This document shows, one piece after another, positions 41,324-53,219 of a DNA stretch of 64,000 bases; the first letter of the stretch is position 1, and each line of letters begins with the position of its first letter. Source of the stretch: Arenicola marina (taxonomy: Eukaryota; Annelida; Polychaeta; Arenicolidae); NCBI GenBank assembly GCA_964019135.1, contig OZ025250.1, forward strand, positions 53,071,357 through 53,135,356, written 5' to 3'. The position numbers and the translations under genes are program-made. The notes under the pieces are model-generated. The model was given only the letters and a program-made list of their open reading frames with translations. It was not told the DNA's origin and did not search any database.

Positions 41324-41499
41324 ATGGATTCCGCGTATGTTGAACTGTCGTCGGCGGATATCAGTGAGGCAGCCACCAACGTTTACCCACGTCTGGCTTG
41401 GCTCCTGATAGAAGAGGGGACGAAGTGTGTCCGGAAGACAGTTTTGTCCCACATCCAAAACGACAACCTCTCGTCGGCGCTGGCGACCAACAAATATCG
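41324..41499 (+). CDS. Exon 1: N-terminus and first helices of the HEPN domain
   Basis: ATG at 41324 opens [10 protein letters not shown]; donor CG|GTTTGT. Residues 18-58 carry the conserved start of the DZIP3-like HEPN region. An additional 5' non-coding exon cannot be excluded. Confidence 0.75.
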
Positions 41500-44400
41500 G
41501 TTTGTATGGAAGGCCATTATAAACATATTTACGTATATATTATCTTGTGAGTTCTTGATAGGAAGGCCAATTACATGACGATAGCACGCAGAAATATATA
41601 TTGATCTGGTTATAATATGTGTTTATGTATTAAGATATTGTTTTCAAAAATTGGTCATGTATAGATAGCTCTTATATGATAAATTCCTTAAACTGCTCAT
41701 ATGTGTGTTATACCCTATGTATGCGATACGTACCCGTATACATATTGATGGCAGCTGCTGATCCAGCCCTAAGATGTAGCTGCAGCTGACAGGATTGATA
41801 ATTTCAGAAGTAAATGCCATGACTAAAGTTCTTCTAACTCCTTAGCCACCTAAAGAAAGATAACCGGGGTAGAATCCAGGTTTATACAACAAGTACACCT
41901 ATAACCGTGATCTTGTGAAAAGTTGTGCATTTTGATGTATTTCGCAATATCTGTCATATGCTGCCTGTGGTGTCATACACAGACCCCAAGACCTTTTGAA
42001 GGTTTGATTAATTTACACCATGATTAATTATGTCTCGTGATATACCTCAACCTGTACTAAGTTATTTGCCAGAGCTCGGCAAAATTCCGACTTCGTTATA
42101 TCATAGAGCGATTTTGTTTATATATTAGACCGGCAAACCCCAGCACAGCATCACTAAATGTTTGAATATACGTTTATGCCAGTCTAAATTGTATTTCTTG
42201 AACGGCATTTACAATAGCAAACTCACAAACTGTGTAATATATATATCTTACGTGTCCTTGGTTGACATTCGCCCGTCTGCGTAAAACGATGCACATGATA
42301 ATACCAAAGATATTCTTTGATAACACTGAATGAATAAACGTTGGAATGGCTTGCCATACATAGGTTCACAAAGCTGCGTGACATGGGACGCATCACAAAG
42401 GCACAGTATGCCATGCTGTACCCAAAATTTGAGGCTGAGGTTGAAGAAAACGACATCGACTTGACCTTGTGGGTAATGCTGGCCAGGAACATCACCGCGT
42501 CATGCAACAAGATCAATTGGACCGCCAAACCCAAGGACTCCCAGAAACTATGGCAACACGACGTCATTCGAATTCGCGACGCCCGCAATCGCCTGTTTCA
42601 CATGATCACGGCAGAGGGCTCTGGCGACGAGTGTCGCGAGATTAGAGCCACTATGACGTCAGCGCTCTCGCGCCTCGGCTGCCGACCGGAAGATATCGAC
42701 AGCTACTTCTCGCGAGATATGGAGCCACACCGCAGAAAGATGTACGAACTGCAAGTTCGGGAACAGTATCTTCAAGAGGTTCACTGCATTTACAAAGCGG
42801 GCGTGAAGGGGAAGCGACAGAGCTGGATTCTCATAACGGTGCTGGTTGCCATGACAGCGGCTATCGTGGTCGCTATCGTGGTTCCCATAGAGATCTTTAA
42901 GAAGGAGCCGCAGTGTGCAGTCAATATTGGCTGGCAGACGGGAGGTAAGTACTTGGTGGTCGCTATGGAAACCGATGTATGTATGTCCATCATCATAATC
43001 CCAAGGCTCTATTCTACAAATGTACAGGAAGCAAAATGTCCCATATATCATATATGTATTTGTTTTTCTCTCATTTCTTTGTAATTGAAAATCGCAACAG
43101 AAATAATCGAACACTGGTTATTTTACTTTAGTCATCTAATTTGCATATGACGTGATAACAATGTTCTTGTGTTATATTAAGTGAGGTCCACTTTTAGACC
43201 ATAATTAACATAATGCTCTCCCCAAGTACAGGCATGTCTATTTATATATATCTTCATACAAAAATGTCTAAACACTAAATGTATTTAGTTTTCCCATCCT
43301 CGTAATGGAGAGCGCTGGTTATTTAGATATGTCATACTCTGGCCACGGTTACCCGGATGTCATTATCCCCCCCCCCCCGCCTTCCTCCCTCCAGAAAGCG
43401 GCCAATTCAAGGTCATGAGCCGCTCCGGGTGGGGTGCGCGCGGAGCTCGCTATGACAACGACACCGCTCAGCGGTTACATCTGCCGGTGAAAAACGTGGT
43501 CATATTTCACACTGCCATGGTAACGCACTGCGCCCTGACCGAGGAATGCTGCGGCCTGGTGCGCAAGATCCAAAACCTGCACATGGGTGAGTCACAGTGG
43601 CGGACCCAGGGGAGGGGGGACGCCAGGGGGTAGTAAGTGCACCCCTCCTTTCTTCTCTGAGGGGAGGGTGGACGCCAGGGGGTAGGTAGTGCACCCCTCC
43701 TTTTTTCTCTGTGCCTGGAGGCCTCGTTTTGATGCAAACTGCACTGGATACTTGATGTGTTGATGACTCCCAACCGCTTTGTCGGTCGTCTTGATTAATT
43801 AACGAACGTTTTCTATTGATACATTCCCAGAAGGAACTACGATATGTGAACGAACCCCAATCTTTGAGTTTTCATTGTACAATTGGGATTAGGAATATAG
43901 TTGCATCGAAAATCAATAGATCTATTTACAAATTGAATTTGTTTTGTTTTGGTTATTAATATTGTCGAACAAAAATACGATATTCATGGACAATTGATTG
44001 ATTTGGGAAAGAGGGGAGGGGGGGGGGGGCACACTATGCTAGTACCCTATATATTGCCTACATTGTGATCAATTTCATTATTTTGGATATTACTTAGACG
44101 ATACGTAAATTATATCAGCAATCTCGAGACATGTACGCTTATTGCCTAATTATATATTGTTGGTACATATTTACGGATTTTATATGATGTAATCCTTGTA
44201 TATATTGAGACATATCCTAATTCCTGGCATATATTTACATATGTTATGTCGCTTACCTATTTACGTATGGTATATATTTACATATTGTATGCTACTTACC
44301 TGTTTACAGATGTACATAACTGGTCCGATATTGGTTACAACTACCTAATCGGCGATGATGGGACAGTATTCGAAGGTCGGGGTTTCCAATACATTGGAGC

Positions 44401-53028: not shown

Positions 53029-53074
<46 letters not shown>

Positions 53075-53219
53075 GTTATTATTGGTATTATTATTATTAT
53101 AGAGAATTAATGTTTCGTCTCCCTTTATCTTGCAGCGCAACTATAGTATTGACACATGTCAGATGAACGCAGACTGTGTGGAGAGCCTCTATATATACTG
53201 CAGGCCTCCCATAGTGTAA
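41324..53219 (+). CDS. HEPN (DZIP3-like) - transmembrane - PGRP fusion receptor, six coding exons
   Basis: join(41324..41499, 42364..42944, 43395..43586, 44310..44412, 44924..45152, 53136..53219) gives 454 residues with every splice phase matching and GT-AG borders. Residues ~18-200 match the DZIP3-like HEPN domain ([62 protein letters not shown]). They keep the HEPN RNase signature R133-N-x3-H138. Residues 213-236 form one membrane helix preceded by KGKRQ, predicting a cytoplasmic N-terminus. Residues ~253-427 are a PGRP/amidase-2 domain: SRSGWGAR, C298-x5-C304 disulfide pair, [24 protein letters not shown]400. The two zinc-ligand positions are F290 and A412 instead of His and Cys, so it probably binds peptidoglycan without cutting it. 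The 27-residue tail has three Cys. The role in immune sensing is inference. Confidence 0.85.
42364..42944 (+). CDS. Exon 2: HEPN core with Rx4H motif, membrane helix
   Basis: Acceptor CATACATAG|G, donor GGGAG|GTAAGT. Encodes residues 59-252 including the RNRLFH motif and the membrane segment [20 protein letters not shown]. Confidence 0.85.
43395..43586 (+). CDS. Exon 3: start of PGRP domain
   Basis: Acceptor CCCTCCAG|A, donor ATGG|GTGAGT. Encodes [15 protein letters not shown] (first zinc-site His replaced by Phe) and the C-x5-C pair, ending at NLHM. Confidence 0.85.
43600..43715. repeat. Short G-rich tandem duplication in intron 3
   Basis: GACGCCAGGGGGTAG...GTGCACCCCTCCTTT occurs twice, about 60 bp apart. 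Confidence 0.6.
43716..44309. other. Remainder of intron 3 of the HEPN-PGRP gene
   Basis: AT-rich; G-run near 44015-44030; no other feature seen. Confidence 0.5.
44310..44412 (+). CDS. Exon 4: PGRP core
   Basis: Acceptor TGTTTACAG|A, donor ATAGA|GTGAGT. Encodes [20 protein letters not shown], the most conserved PGRP segment. Confidence 0.9.
44430..44580 (-). repeat. Dispersed repeat, partial copy C, in intron 4
   Basis: TTTAAAGCAGCCTACTTACA, then GATGCACATGTGTTTTATAT: same order as 53505-53640 and as the reverse complement of 39130-39240. Confidence 0.6.
44680..44880. repeat. Minisatellite in intron 4, unit about 14 bp
   Basis: TTGACACAATGTA / TTGACACAGTTTA repeated about 14 times. Confidence 0.75.
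44924..45152 (+). CDS. Exon 5: C-terminal half of PGRP domain; source of the 47-bp array
   Basis: Acceptor GCATACAG|C. Encodes [20 protein letters not shown] through LYGHC and [16 protein letters not shown]. Donor TGG|GTAAGT at 45153. The last ~30 bases of the exon and the donor are the founder-like sequence of the tandem array that fills the next intron. Confidence 0.85.
45106..52735 (+). repeat. Tandem array of ~160 copies of a 47-bp exon-end/5' splice-site unit
   Basis: Consensus, in two parts: GTAAGTCGTCAGTCCTCATG, then CAACAGCTCACTACTCTCAA and CCACTGG (47 bp). The first copy is the real exon 5 end and its donor. Copies run nearly without interruption to about 52735; (52735-45106)/47 is about 162. 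Variants include CTGAC for CTCAC, ATACAACAG for ATGCAACAG, a TACGTCGGAAGCACTCATAC type and +2 bp types (CCTCTCATAC). Higher-order repetition is visible. Almost every unit keeps TGG|GTAAGT, a near-consensus splice donor. Confidence 0.95.
53030..53100. repeat. (TTA)n microsatellite before the last acceptor
   Basis: About 20 ATT triplets with two interruptions, ending 35 bp before the exon 6 acceptor. Confidence 0.85.
53136..53219 (+). CDS. Exon 6: 27-residue Cys-containing tail and stop
   Basis: Acceptor TTTATCTTGCAG|CGC with a pyrimidine-rich tract. It continues in phase 0 after exon 5 with [20 protein letters not shown] to YCRPPIV and TAA at 53217-53219. It contains three Cys and an N-glycosylation sequon (NYS). 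No other acceptor with an open frame was seen after the array, but the join needs RNA evidence. Confidence 0.65.
   Translation, partial: RNYSIDTCQMNADCVESLYIYCRPPIV

What the first reader, a model, noticed from the sequence alone, without database searches (positions are those of the whole stretch)
41324..53219. A HEPN domain fused through a membrane helix to a peptidoglycan-recognition domain
Six exons with consistent phases join a DZIP3-like HEPN domain (residues ~18-200), one transmembrane helix (213-236) and a PGRP domain (253-427). PGRPs are known as secreted or membrane immune receptors, and DZIP3-like HEPN domains are known from invertebrate multidomain proteins. I do not know of a described protein joining the two. 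The predicted topology places a possible RNase domain in the cytoplasm and a cell-wall sensor outside, so binding of bacterial fragments could control RNA cleavage or a HEPN-based signalling complex. This is the best candidate for a new innate-immune module in the window.
Basis: partly seen in the sequence, partly recalled or inferred. Interest (0 to 1): 0.92.

Follow-up and report, generated by a model that had tools for sequence, protein, structure and literature searches.

The report
Membrane peptidoglycan-sensor fused to HEPN domain
An animal genome carries a family of a dozen similar gene copies, most of them intact, that join a probable RNA-cutting domain inside the cell, through one membrane helix, to a bacterial-cell-wall-recognition domain outside, a receptor layout that we did not find described.

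Summary
The fusion is real. The six exons give one 454-residue frame with GT-AG borders. Pfam finds HEPN_DZIP3 (7e-17) and Amidase_2/PGRP (8.4e-10), both above cut-off. Decisive: in the same genome 11 tandem loci on another contig repeat HEPN, membrane helix and PGRP in the same order; 7 of 11 are complete open frames with the same phases, the other four damaged or incomplete. Window and C7 copies are 49-52% identical in HEPN and 55-57% in PGRP, dN/dS about 0.2 in both (four comparisons, dS saturated). RNRLFH, the RNase motif, is kept at 11 of 11 C7 loci; the amidase Cys is Ala or Ser. Charges favour HEPN inside and PGRP outside. Most likely this is a PGRP-LC-like receptor in which clustering of PGRP activates or assembles HEPN; RNase activity, ligand and expression are untested. 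Mytilus database proteins carry another HEPN-like domain (DUF4559) with helices and PGRP, so the pairing may have arisen twice. Two paper searches found no description.

The parts
41324..41499 (+). exon 1: start codon and first part of HEPN (residues 1-59)
   Evidence: open frame, GT donor (weak GTTTGT); homologous to the uninterrupted C7 HEPN exon
42364..42944 (+). exon 2: rest of HEPN_DZIP3, linker, transmembrane helix, juxtamembrane stretch (residues 59-253)
   Evidence: PF18738 residues 47-185 E 7e-17; phase-1 donor at the homologous place in the C7 copies
42584..42601 (+). RNRLFH, the Rx4H motif of HEPN RNases (residues 133-138)
   Evidence: same six residues at 11 of 11 C7 loci
42827..42889 (+). 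transmembrane helix, residues 214-234
   Evidence: mean hydropathy 2.92 over 21 residues; charge +4 on the 15 residues before it, 0 on the 15 after
43395..43586 (+). exon 3: start of PGRP
   Evidence: tblastn matches at 11 of 11 C7 loci, one in two pieces; PDB PGRP alignments
44310..44412 (+). exon 4: PGRP, DIGYN...GTVFEGRG core
   Evidence: 11 of 11 C7 loci
44924..45152 (+). exon 5: PGRP C-terminal half
   Evidence: 55-63% identical to C7 copies, 11 of 11 loci, two of them partial
53136..53219 (+). exon 6: cysteine-containing C-terminal tail and stop
   Evidence: homologous exon at 10 of 11 C7 loci
45120..52733 (+). 47-bp minisatellite, 161 copies, first unit overlapping the end of exon 5; units contain that exon end plus its splice donor; fills nearly all of intron 5
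   Evidence: TRF; GT kept in 155 of 161 and GTAAGT in 132 of 161 units

Best explanation
The gene encodes a single-pass type II membrane receptor. The C-terminal PGRP domain faces outside (or an endosome lumen) and the N-terminal DZIP3-type HEPN domain faces the cytosol. The PGRP has lost amidase chemistry and acts as a sensor. Binding of polymeric bacterial wall material or a related ligand clusters receptors and brings HEPN domains together; HEPN RNases work as dimers with a composite active site (general knowledge of HEPN, recalled), so clustering would switch on cleavage of RNA near the membrane, much as IRE1 links a lumenal sensor to a cytosolic RNase. Shown: fused open frames in a paralogue family, domain identities, constraint on both domains, intact RNxxxH. 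Inferred: topology, non-catalytic PGRP. Not shown: ligand, dimerisation, RNase activity, expression.
For: Clean six-exon model with both Pfam domains over cut-off; 31 distinct PDB sequences (PGRPs and amidases) match at E<=0.001, best 2.9e-29. 11 tandem loci with the same module order, 7 of 11 complete with GT-AG and the same phases. dN/dS window versus c1, c2, c3, c11 (four of nine models compared): HEPN 0.21-0.23, PGRP 0.17-0.25. RNRLFH at 11 of 11 C7 loci; the C13 HEPN_DZIP3 locus of the same genome lacks the His, by eye. Charge difference across the helix favours N-in in 10 of 10 models. A C7 PGRP has PDB chains of Drosophila PGRP-LC and PGRP-LE as its second and third best matches and shares their Ser at the SPG position.
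Against: No transcript, protein or assay. dS is saturated in the window comparisons, so those ratios are rough. Between close C7 copies the ratios are higher and noisy: whole gene 0.22-0.54 in nine pairs, PGRP 0.19-0.43 in eight of them and 1.16 in c6-c11, where changes are few. Four of 11 C7 loci are damaged or incomplete. PGRP groove positions depart from the aligned PGRPs: RGW becomes RGF (window), RGR, CGR or RGP, and GAH becomes GAA or GRD, so it may not bind canonical peptidoglycan. Structure predictions were poor (mean pLDDT 50.8 and 38.5) and neither confirm nor refute the HEPN fold. The topology argument is a simple charge count; N-glycosylation motifs occur on both sides of the helix.
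Confidence: 0.5

Rival explanations
1. Same receptor, but HEPN is a signalling or oligomerisation module that recruits partners (as DEATH or RHIM-type domains do) rather than an RNase.
For: DZIP3-type HEPN is reported fused to NACHT, DEATH, CARD and LRR in animals (PMC3710099 passages); Drosophila PGRP-LC signals through cytoplasmic protein interaction (recalled).
Against: RNRLFH is kept at 11 of 11 C7 loci and in the window, which a pure scaffold need not keep; 194 of 202 HEPN_DZIP3 proteins of the diploid Pinctada fucata genome keep Rx4-6H (PMC9646362 passages).
Confidence: 0.33
2. Membrane-anchored scavenger, decoy or adhesion receptor for bacteria; HEPN contributes only localisation or regulation, or PGRP binds something other than peptidoglycan.
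For: Cys to Ala/Ser and altered groove residues; C7 copy 1 PGRP has diverged strongly (dS 0.99 against copy 2) while its HEPN stays close (dS 0.14).
Against: HEPN and PGRP are under similar constraint between window and C7 genes.
Confidence: 0.12
3. Two neighbouring genes, or a prediction artefact, wrongly joined.
For: No RNA evidence; intron 1 splice sites are weak.
Against: 11 of 11 C7 loci have the same modules in the same order, 7 of 11 joined in frame with the same phases; the stretch between the HEPN-TM exon and exon 3 is only 0.2-1.4 kb in the 11.
Confidence: 0.02
4. The family is functional but the window copy is a decaying dispersed copy, given its extra weak intron and the 7.6-kb minisatellite in intron 5.
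For: Weak donor GTTTGT and acceptor without a clear pyrimidine tract; intron 1 absent from all 11 C7 loci; of 150 candidate donors in the array only the first yields the exon 6 tail in frame.
Against: No stop or frameshift in 454 codons after saturating synonymous divergence, and low dN/dS.
Confidence: 0.1

Closest known systems
Mytilus 'Peptidoglycan recognition protein 1' and M. californianus LOC127728087 (P0001, P0002)
   Same: N-terminal region with an RNKIVH motif, hydrophobic helices, C-terminal PGRP with Ser at the SPG position
   Different: N-terminal family is PF15112/DUF4559 (that this is the CXorf38 type of HEPN is recalled; a Cys-rich insert is visible), not HEPN_DZIP3; two or three hydrophobic helices by eye instead of one; profile comparison of the two N-terminal regions aligned only the motif and was not significant
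Drosophila PGRP-LC (type II membrane PGRP receptor)
   Same: Cytosolic N-terminus, one membrane helix, C-terminal non-amidase PGRP (topology of PGRP-LC recalled); sequence match of a C7 PGRP to 2f2l_X E 2.9e-30
   Different: PGRP-LC has a RHIM-like cytoplasmic region (recalled), not HEPN
DZIP3/hRUL138-type HEPN multidomain proteins of animals
   Same: Same HEPN family (PF18738), Rx4H kept
   Different: Listed partners are TPR, Zn-ribbon, RING, Ankyrin, CARD, NACHT, DEATH, LRR (PMC3710099 passages) and, in Pinctada, NACHT with others (PMC9646362 passages); no PGRP partner in those passages
IRE1 and C6orf70-type membrane HEPN-superfamily RNases
   Same: One membrane region joined to a HEPN-superfamily RNase, at the ER membrane (PMC3710099 passages; IRE1 topology recalled)
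   Different: Different HEPN families and no PGRP sensor
M. edulis transmembrane PGRP HE609080
   Different: Its sequence was not examined here; no HEPN is mentioned in the passages read

Membership tests
HEPN_DZIP3 (PF18738) | profile match above the curated cut-off | tested here: met
   62 bits versus cut-off 27, profile positions 2-143 of 144; 4 of 4 members of A1 match
HEPN_DZIP3 (PF18738) | Rx4-6H motif | tested here: met
   RNRLFH in the window and at 11 of 11 C7 loci
HEPN_DZIP3 (PF18738) | all-helical HEPN fold | tested here: inconclusive
HEPN RNase | metal-independent endoribonuclease activity as a dimer | not testable with these tools
   needs protein
PGRP | PGRP/Amidase_2 domain | tested here: met
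   PF01510 39.5 bits versus cut-off 26; PDB PGRPs to 2.9e-29
amidase-type PGRP | His, Tyr, His and Cys of the zinc site (roles recalled) | tested here: not met
   H291, Y326, H400 present; the Cys position is A412 in the window and Ser in 9 of 9 C7 models; CPG seen in P0019
type II membrane PGRP receptor (PGRP-LC-like) | single internal helix with cytosolic N-terminus and outer C-terminal PGRP | tested here: inconclusive
   one helix, charge +4 before and 0 to +2 after it in 10 of 10 models; no experiment
type II membrane PGRP receptor (PGRP-LC-like) | RHIM-like motif / Imd signalling | not tested
   no search for a RHIM motif was done; the cytosolic part matches HEPN
Mytilus DUF4559-TM-PGRP | PF15112 domain at the N-terminus | tested here: not met
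   no PF15112 row up to E 1 for the window protein

The most novel reading that the evidence does not exclude
A one-protein bacterial-sensor-to-RNase receptor: extracellular PGRP clustering directly activates a cytosolic HEPN nuclease, an IRE1-like immune receptor that needs no adaptor, invented at least twice in animals from two different HEPN families (DZIP3 type here, DUF4559 type in Mytilus).
Probability: 0.3. Interest if true: 0.92.

Novelty: new variant of a known kind. Interest (0 to 1): 0.77.

Why it matters
Known membrane PGRPs signal through adaptor pathways (recalled); animal HEPN proteins tied to immunity have been described with NACHT, DEATH or CARD partners (PMC3710099 passages). 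A receptor that carries a wall sensor and a probable RNase on one chain would connect bacterial detection directly to RNA cleavage, and could be tested in a transfection experiment. Its amplification in one genome, and a parallel design in Mytilus, suggest that the pairing is useful rather than accidental.

Tried and rejected
Separate-gene reading: rejected because of the 11 C7 loci.

Homologues in other species with HEPN_DZIP3 plus PGRP: searches of the 5.8-billion-protein set with the full protein (18 hits among 7249 candidates), with a 4-member family profile (20 hits, only the 7998 candidates sharing most words scored) and with residues 1-250 of C7 copy 2 (2284 candidates, no hit) found none. 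All are limited to proteins of 0.55 to 1.75 times the query length. The last search found no HEPN relative at all, so that collection or its word filter seems blind to animal HEPN_DZIP3, and absence there is no evidence of rarity.

Structure: AlphaFold on the C7 HEPN-TM exon alignment gave mean pLDDT 50.8, on the Mytilus protein 38.5; the PDB comparison of the first gave weak matches, mostly of unrelated helical chains. The HEPN-TM profile found no PDB sequence better than E 0.4. Profile comparison of the two HEPN types gave probability 0.4 percent, aligned at the RNxxxH motif only, on very shallow alignments: no evidence of close kinship; the two-origins idea rests on their different Pfam families and was not tested by trees.

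Anti-phage library: PglZ in 3 of 4 members of A1, best E 0.0021, none for the window protein; not pursued, regarded as chance.

Species: not identified; a COX1 search of the genome did not complete. 'Perhaps mollusc' rests only on the nearest long PGRPs being from Mytilus. Pinctada fucata seems unlikely: 202 HEPN_DZIP3 proteins in its diploid genome against 12 matches here, but only 15 candidates were scored, so 12 is a lower bound.

Not checked: other PGRP loci of this genome (C1, C8, C13) for upstream HEPN; I know only that searches show no HEPN match beside them. with the Mytilus protein gave one weak match to its N-terminal half (C7:11195719-11196135, E 9.6e-4) and PGRP matches elsewhere; none was followed. 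My count of splice units in the C7 copy 1 array by a simple registering script was unreliable (95 of 199 units registered); TRF is used instead.
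Full report
What is in the window. Six exons between 41324 and 53219 splice into a 454-residue frame; all five introns are GT-AG and the phases are 2,1,1,2,0. Pfam assigns residues 47-185 to HEPN_DZIP3 (E 7e-17) and 283-407 to Amidase_2, the PGRP domain (E 8.4e-10), both over the curated cut-offs. By sequence the PGRP part matches 31 distinct PDB sequences at E<=0.001, led by PGRP3 chain 4z8i (2.9e-29). 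A single strong hydrophobic helix lies at 214-234.

Is it one gene? No RNA is available, but the genome itself answers. A search of the window's own assembly (867 Mb, 762 contigs; the window is on contig C3) found, besides the window gene, a tandem array on contig C7 between about 39.58 and 39.74 Mb. I fetched 180 kb and found 11 loci, each with HEPN-TM, then exons 3, 4 and 5 in the same order and on the same strand; exon 6 was found at 10 of 11. Gene models by homology: copies 2, 3, 5, 6, 7, 9 and 11 (7 of 11) are complete open frames of five exons, GT-AG, phases 1,1,2,0; copy 1 is open over four exons, no exon 6 having been found behind a 12-kb repeat; copy 4 lacks the start of exon 5 and its acceptor; copies 8 and 10 are frameshifted in the HEPN exon, and copy 8 shares copy 4's exon 5 defect. 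Copy 7 holds a second exon-5-like stretch. The HEPN-TM part is uninterrupted in the C7 copies, so intron 1 is peculiar to the window gene. There the donor is weak; an alternative pair (donor four bases on, acceptor ten bases on) would keep the frame with two residues fewer.

Constraint. The window protein is 49-52% identical to the nine C7 models over HEPN, 23-27% over helix and linker and 55-57% over PGRP. Nei-Gojobori dN/dS against four of the nine (c1, c2, c3, c11) is 0.21-0.23 for HEPN and 0.17-0.25 for PGRP, with synonymous sites saturated (dS 1.5-2.4). Nine pairs among the C7 copies gave 0.22-0.54 for the whole gene; their PGRP values were 0.19-0.43 in eight pairs and 1.16 in c6-c11, where few sites differ (all). 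Both halves of the window gene are therefore kept as protein; among recent copies the ratios are noisier and constraint may be looser. RNRLFH, the Rx4H motif of HEPN RNases, stands at 11 of 11 C7 loci. In the same genome the profile search for HEPN_DZIP3 gave 12 matches from 15 scored candidates: ten on the C7 array, the window gene and one on C13. The C13 locus lacks the motif His and is followed by a CARD-like frame, both judged by eye.

The sensor. The PGRP keeps the His, Tyr and His corresponding to zinc ligands, but the Cys is Ala in the window and Ser in nine of nine C7 models; the PDB chains of PGRP-LC, PGRP-LE and PGRP1 shown have Ser at that place, while P0019 has Cys. That this Cys is needed for amidase activity is recalled; the amidase PGRP-LB was among the hits but its alignment was not shown. 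Groove positions differ from the aligned PGRPs: RGW is RGF in the window and RGR, CGR or RGP in C7 copies, GAH is GAA, or GRD in copy 1. The ligand is open.

Topology. In ten of ten models (the window and nine C7 copies) the 15 residues before the helix carry +4 and the 15 after it 0 to +2; there are 6-11 cysteines after the helix and 1-5 before. This favours HEPN inside and PGRP outside. It is a simple count, not an experiment; N-glycosylation motifs lie on both sides.

Relatives. Protein searches returned, as best hits, Mytilus PGRP 1 (P0001) and a M. californianus protein (P0002). Their PGRP is 38-39% identical to the window's over about 38% of the query, but the N-terminus is DUF4559 (PF15112; E 6.4e-22 and 2.1e-18), with RNKIVH and a Cys-rich insert. 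Anantharaman et al. list CXorf38-type HEPN with an inserted Zn-ribbon and fusions to dsRBD, NACHT, Ankyrin, CARD and DEATH, and DZIP3 type with TPR, Zn-ribbon, RING, Ankyrin, CARD, NACHT, DEATH and LRR (PMC3710099, passages); that PF15112 is the CXorf38 family is recalled. So two different HEPN types appear to have been joined through membrane helices to PGRP. Independent origin is an inference, not tested by trees. The Mytilus helices number two or three by eye, so its topology may differ.

Print. 'HEPN' with 'peptidoglycan recognition' occurs in 5 papers of the library, 4 listed, and with DZIP3 and 'peptidoglycan recognition protein' in 2, 1 listed. I read passages of the Aplysia paper (PMC9334734), where the two domains are mentioned in separate proteins, and of PMC7773633, where HEPN occurs only in a reference title; the other two listed (PMC8416313, PMC12686805) I saw in the listing only. 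M. [quoted passage not shown] Further listings showed no title or abstract start about such a fusion. Subscription papers and preprints are mostly not in the library.

Mechanism. The best reading is a type II receptor in which PGRP clustering brings HEPN domains together and switches on an RNase, as in IRE1. Shown: the fused family and its constraint. Inferred: topology and loss of amidase chemistry. Not shown: ligand, dimer, cleavage, expression. A scaffold role for HEPN is the main rival.

A second oddity. Intron 5 of the window gene is almost wholly a 47-bp minisatellite, 161 copies, whose unit contains the end of exon 5 and its donor; GT is kept in 155 of 161 units, and of 150 candidate donors only the first gives the exon 6 tail in frame. 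The same exon end is repeated with other unit lengths in C7 copy 1 (60 bp, 199 copies by TRF; TGGGTGAGT counted 91 times), copy 2 (61 bp, about 2 copies) and copies 4 and 8 (61 bp, about 4 copies). This junction seems prone to tandem duplication. One paper search on minisatellites and splice donors listed one paper, not on this (listing only).

Verdict. Real, in a multigene family, under selection in the window copy, and not found in print; the parts and the receptor layout are of known kinds, so I call it a new variant of a known kind with high interest.

Noticed in passing
window 45120-52733; C7 copies 1, 2, 4, 8 (L022-L024, L025, L027, L033): The exon 5 end with its splice donor has been tandemly multiplied at several paralogues with different unit lengths (47, 60, 61 bp; about 161, 199, 2, 4, 4 copies). 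In the window GT is kept in 155 of 161 units; in C7 copy 1 TGGGTGAGT occurs 91 times.
   Followed up: partly
C7 copy 1 versus copy 2 (L022, L024-L025): HEPN exon close (dS 0.14) while PGRP is far diverged (dS 0.99): HEPN looks homogenised by gene conversion, or the PGRP exons were exchanged, while the sensor varied.
   Followed up: partly
L043 1925-2986 and 3880-4329: HEPN_DZIP3 frame on C13 without the Rx4H His, next to a CARD-like frame (CARD judged by eye).
   Followed up: no
G000:C7:39680936-39681175 (L032): C7 copy 7 carries a second exon-5-like stretch with a stop, about 0.6 kb before the exon 5 used in the model.
   Followed up: no
window 36402-37527 (-): Retroelement-like frames (integrase-like by eye) about 4 kb upstream of the gene.
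   Followed up: no
window 21017-25153 (+): A 1379-codon open frame, not scanned against any library.
   Followed up: no
window 41500-42363: Intron within HEPN found only in the window copy, with weak splice sites: a possible intron gain.
   Followed up: partly
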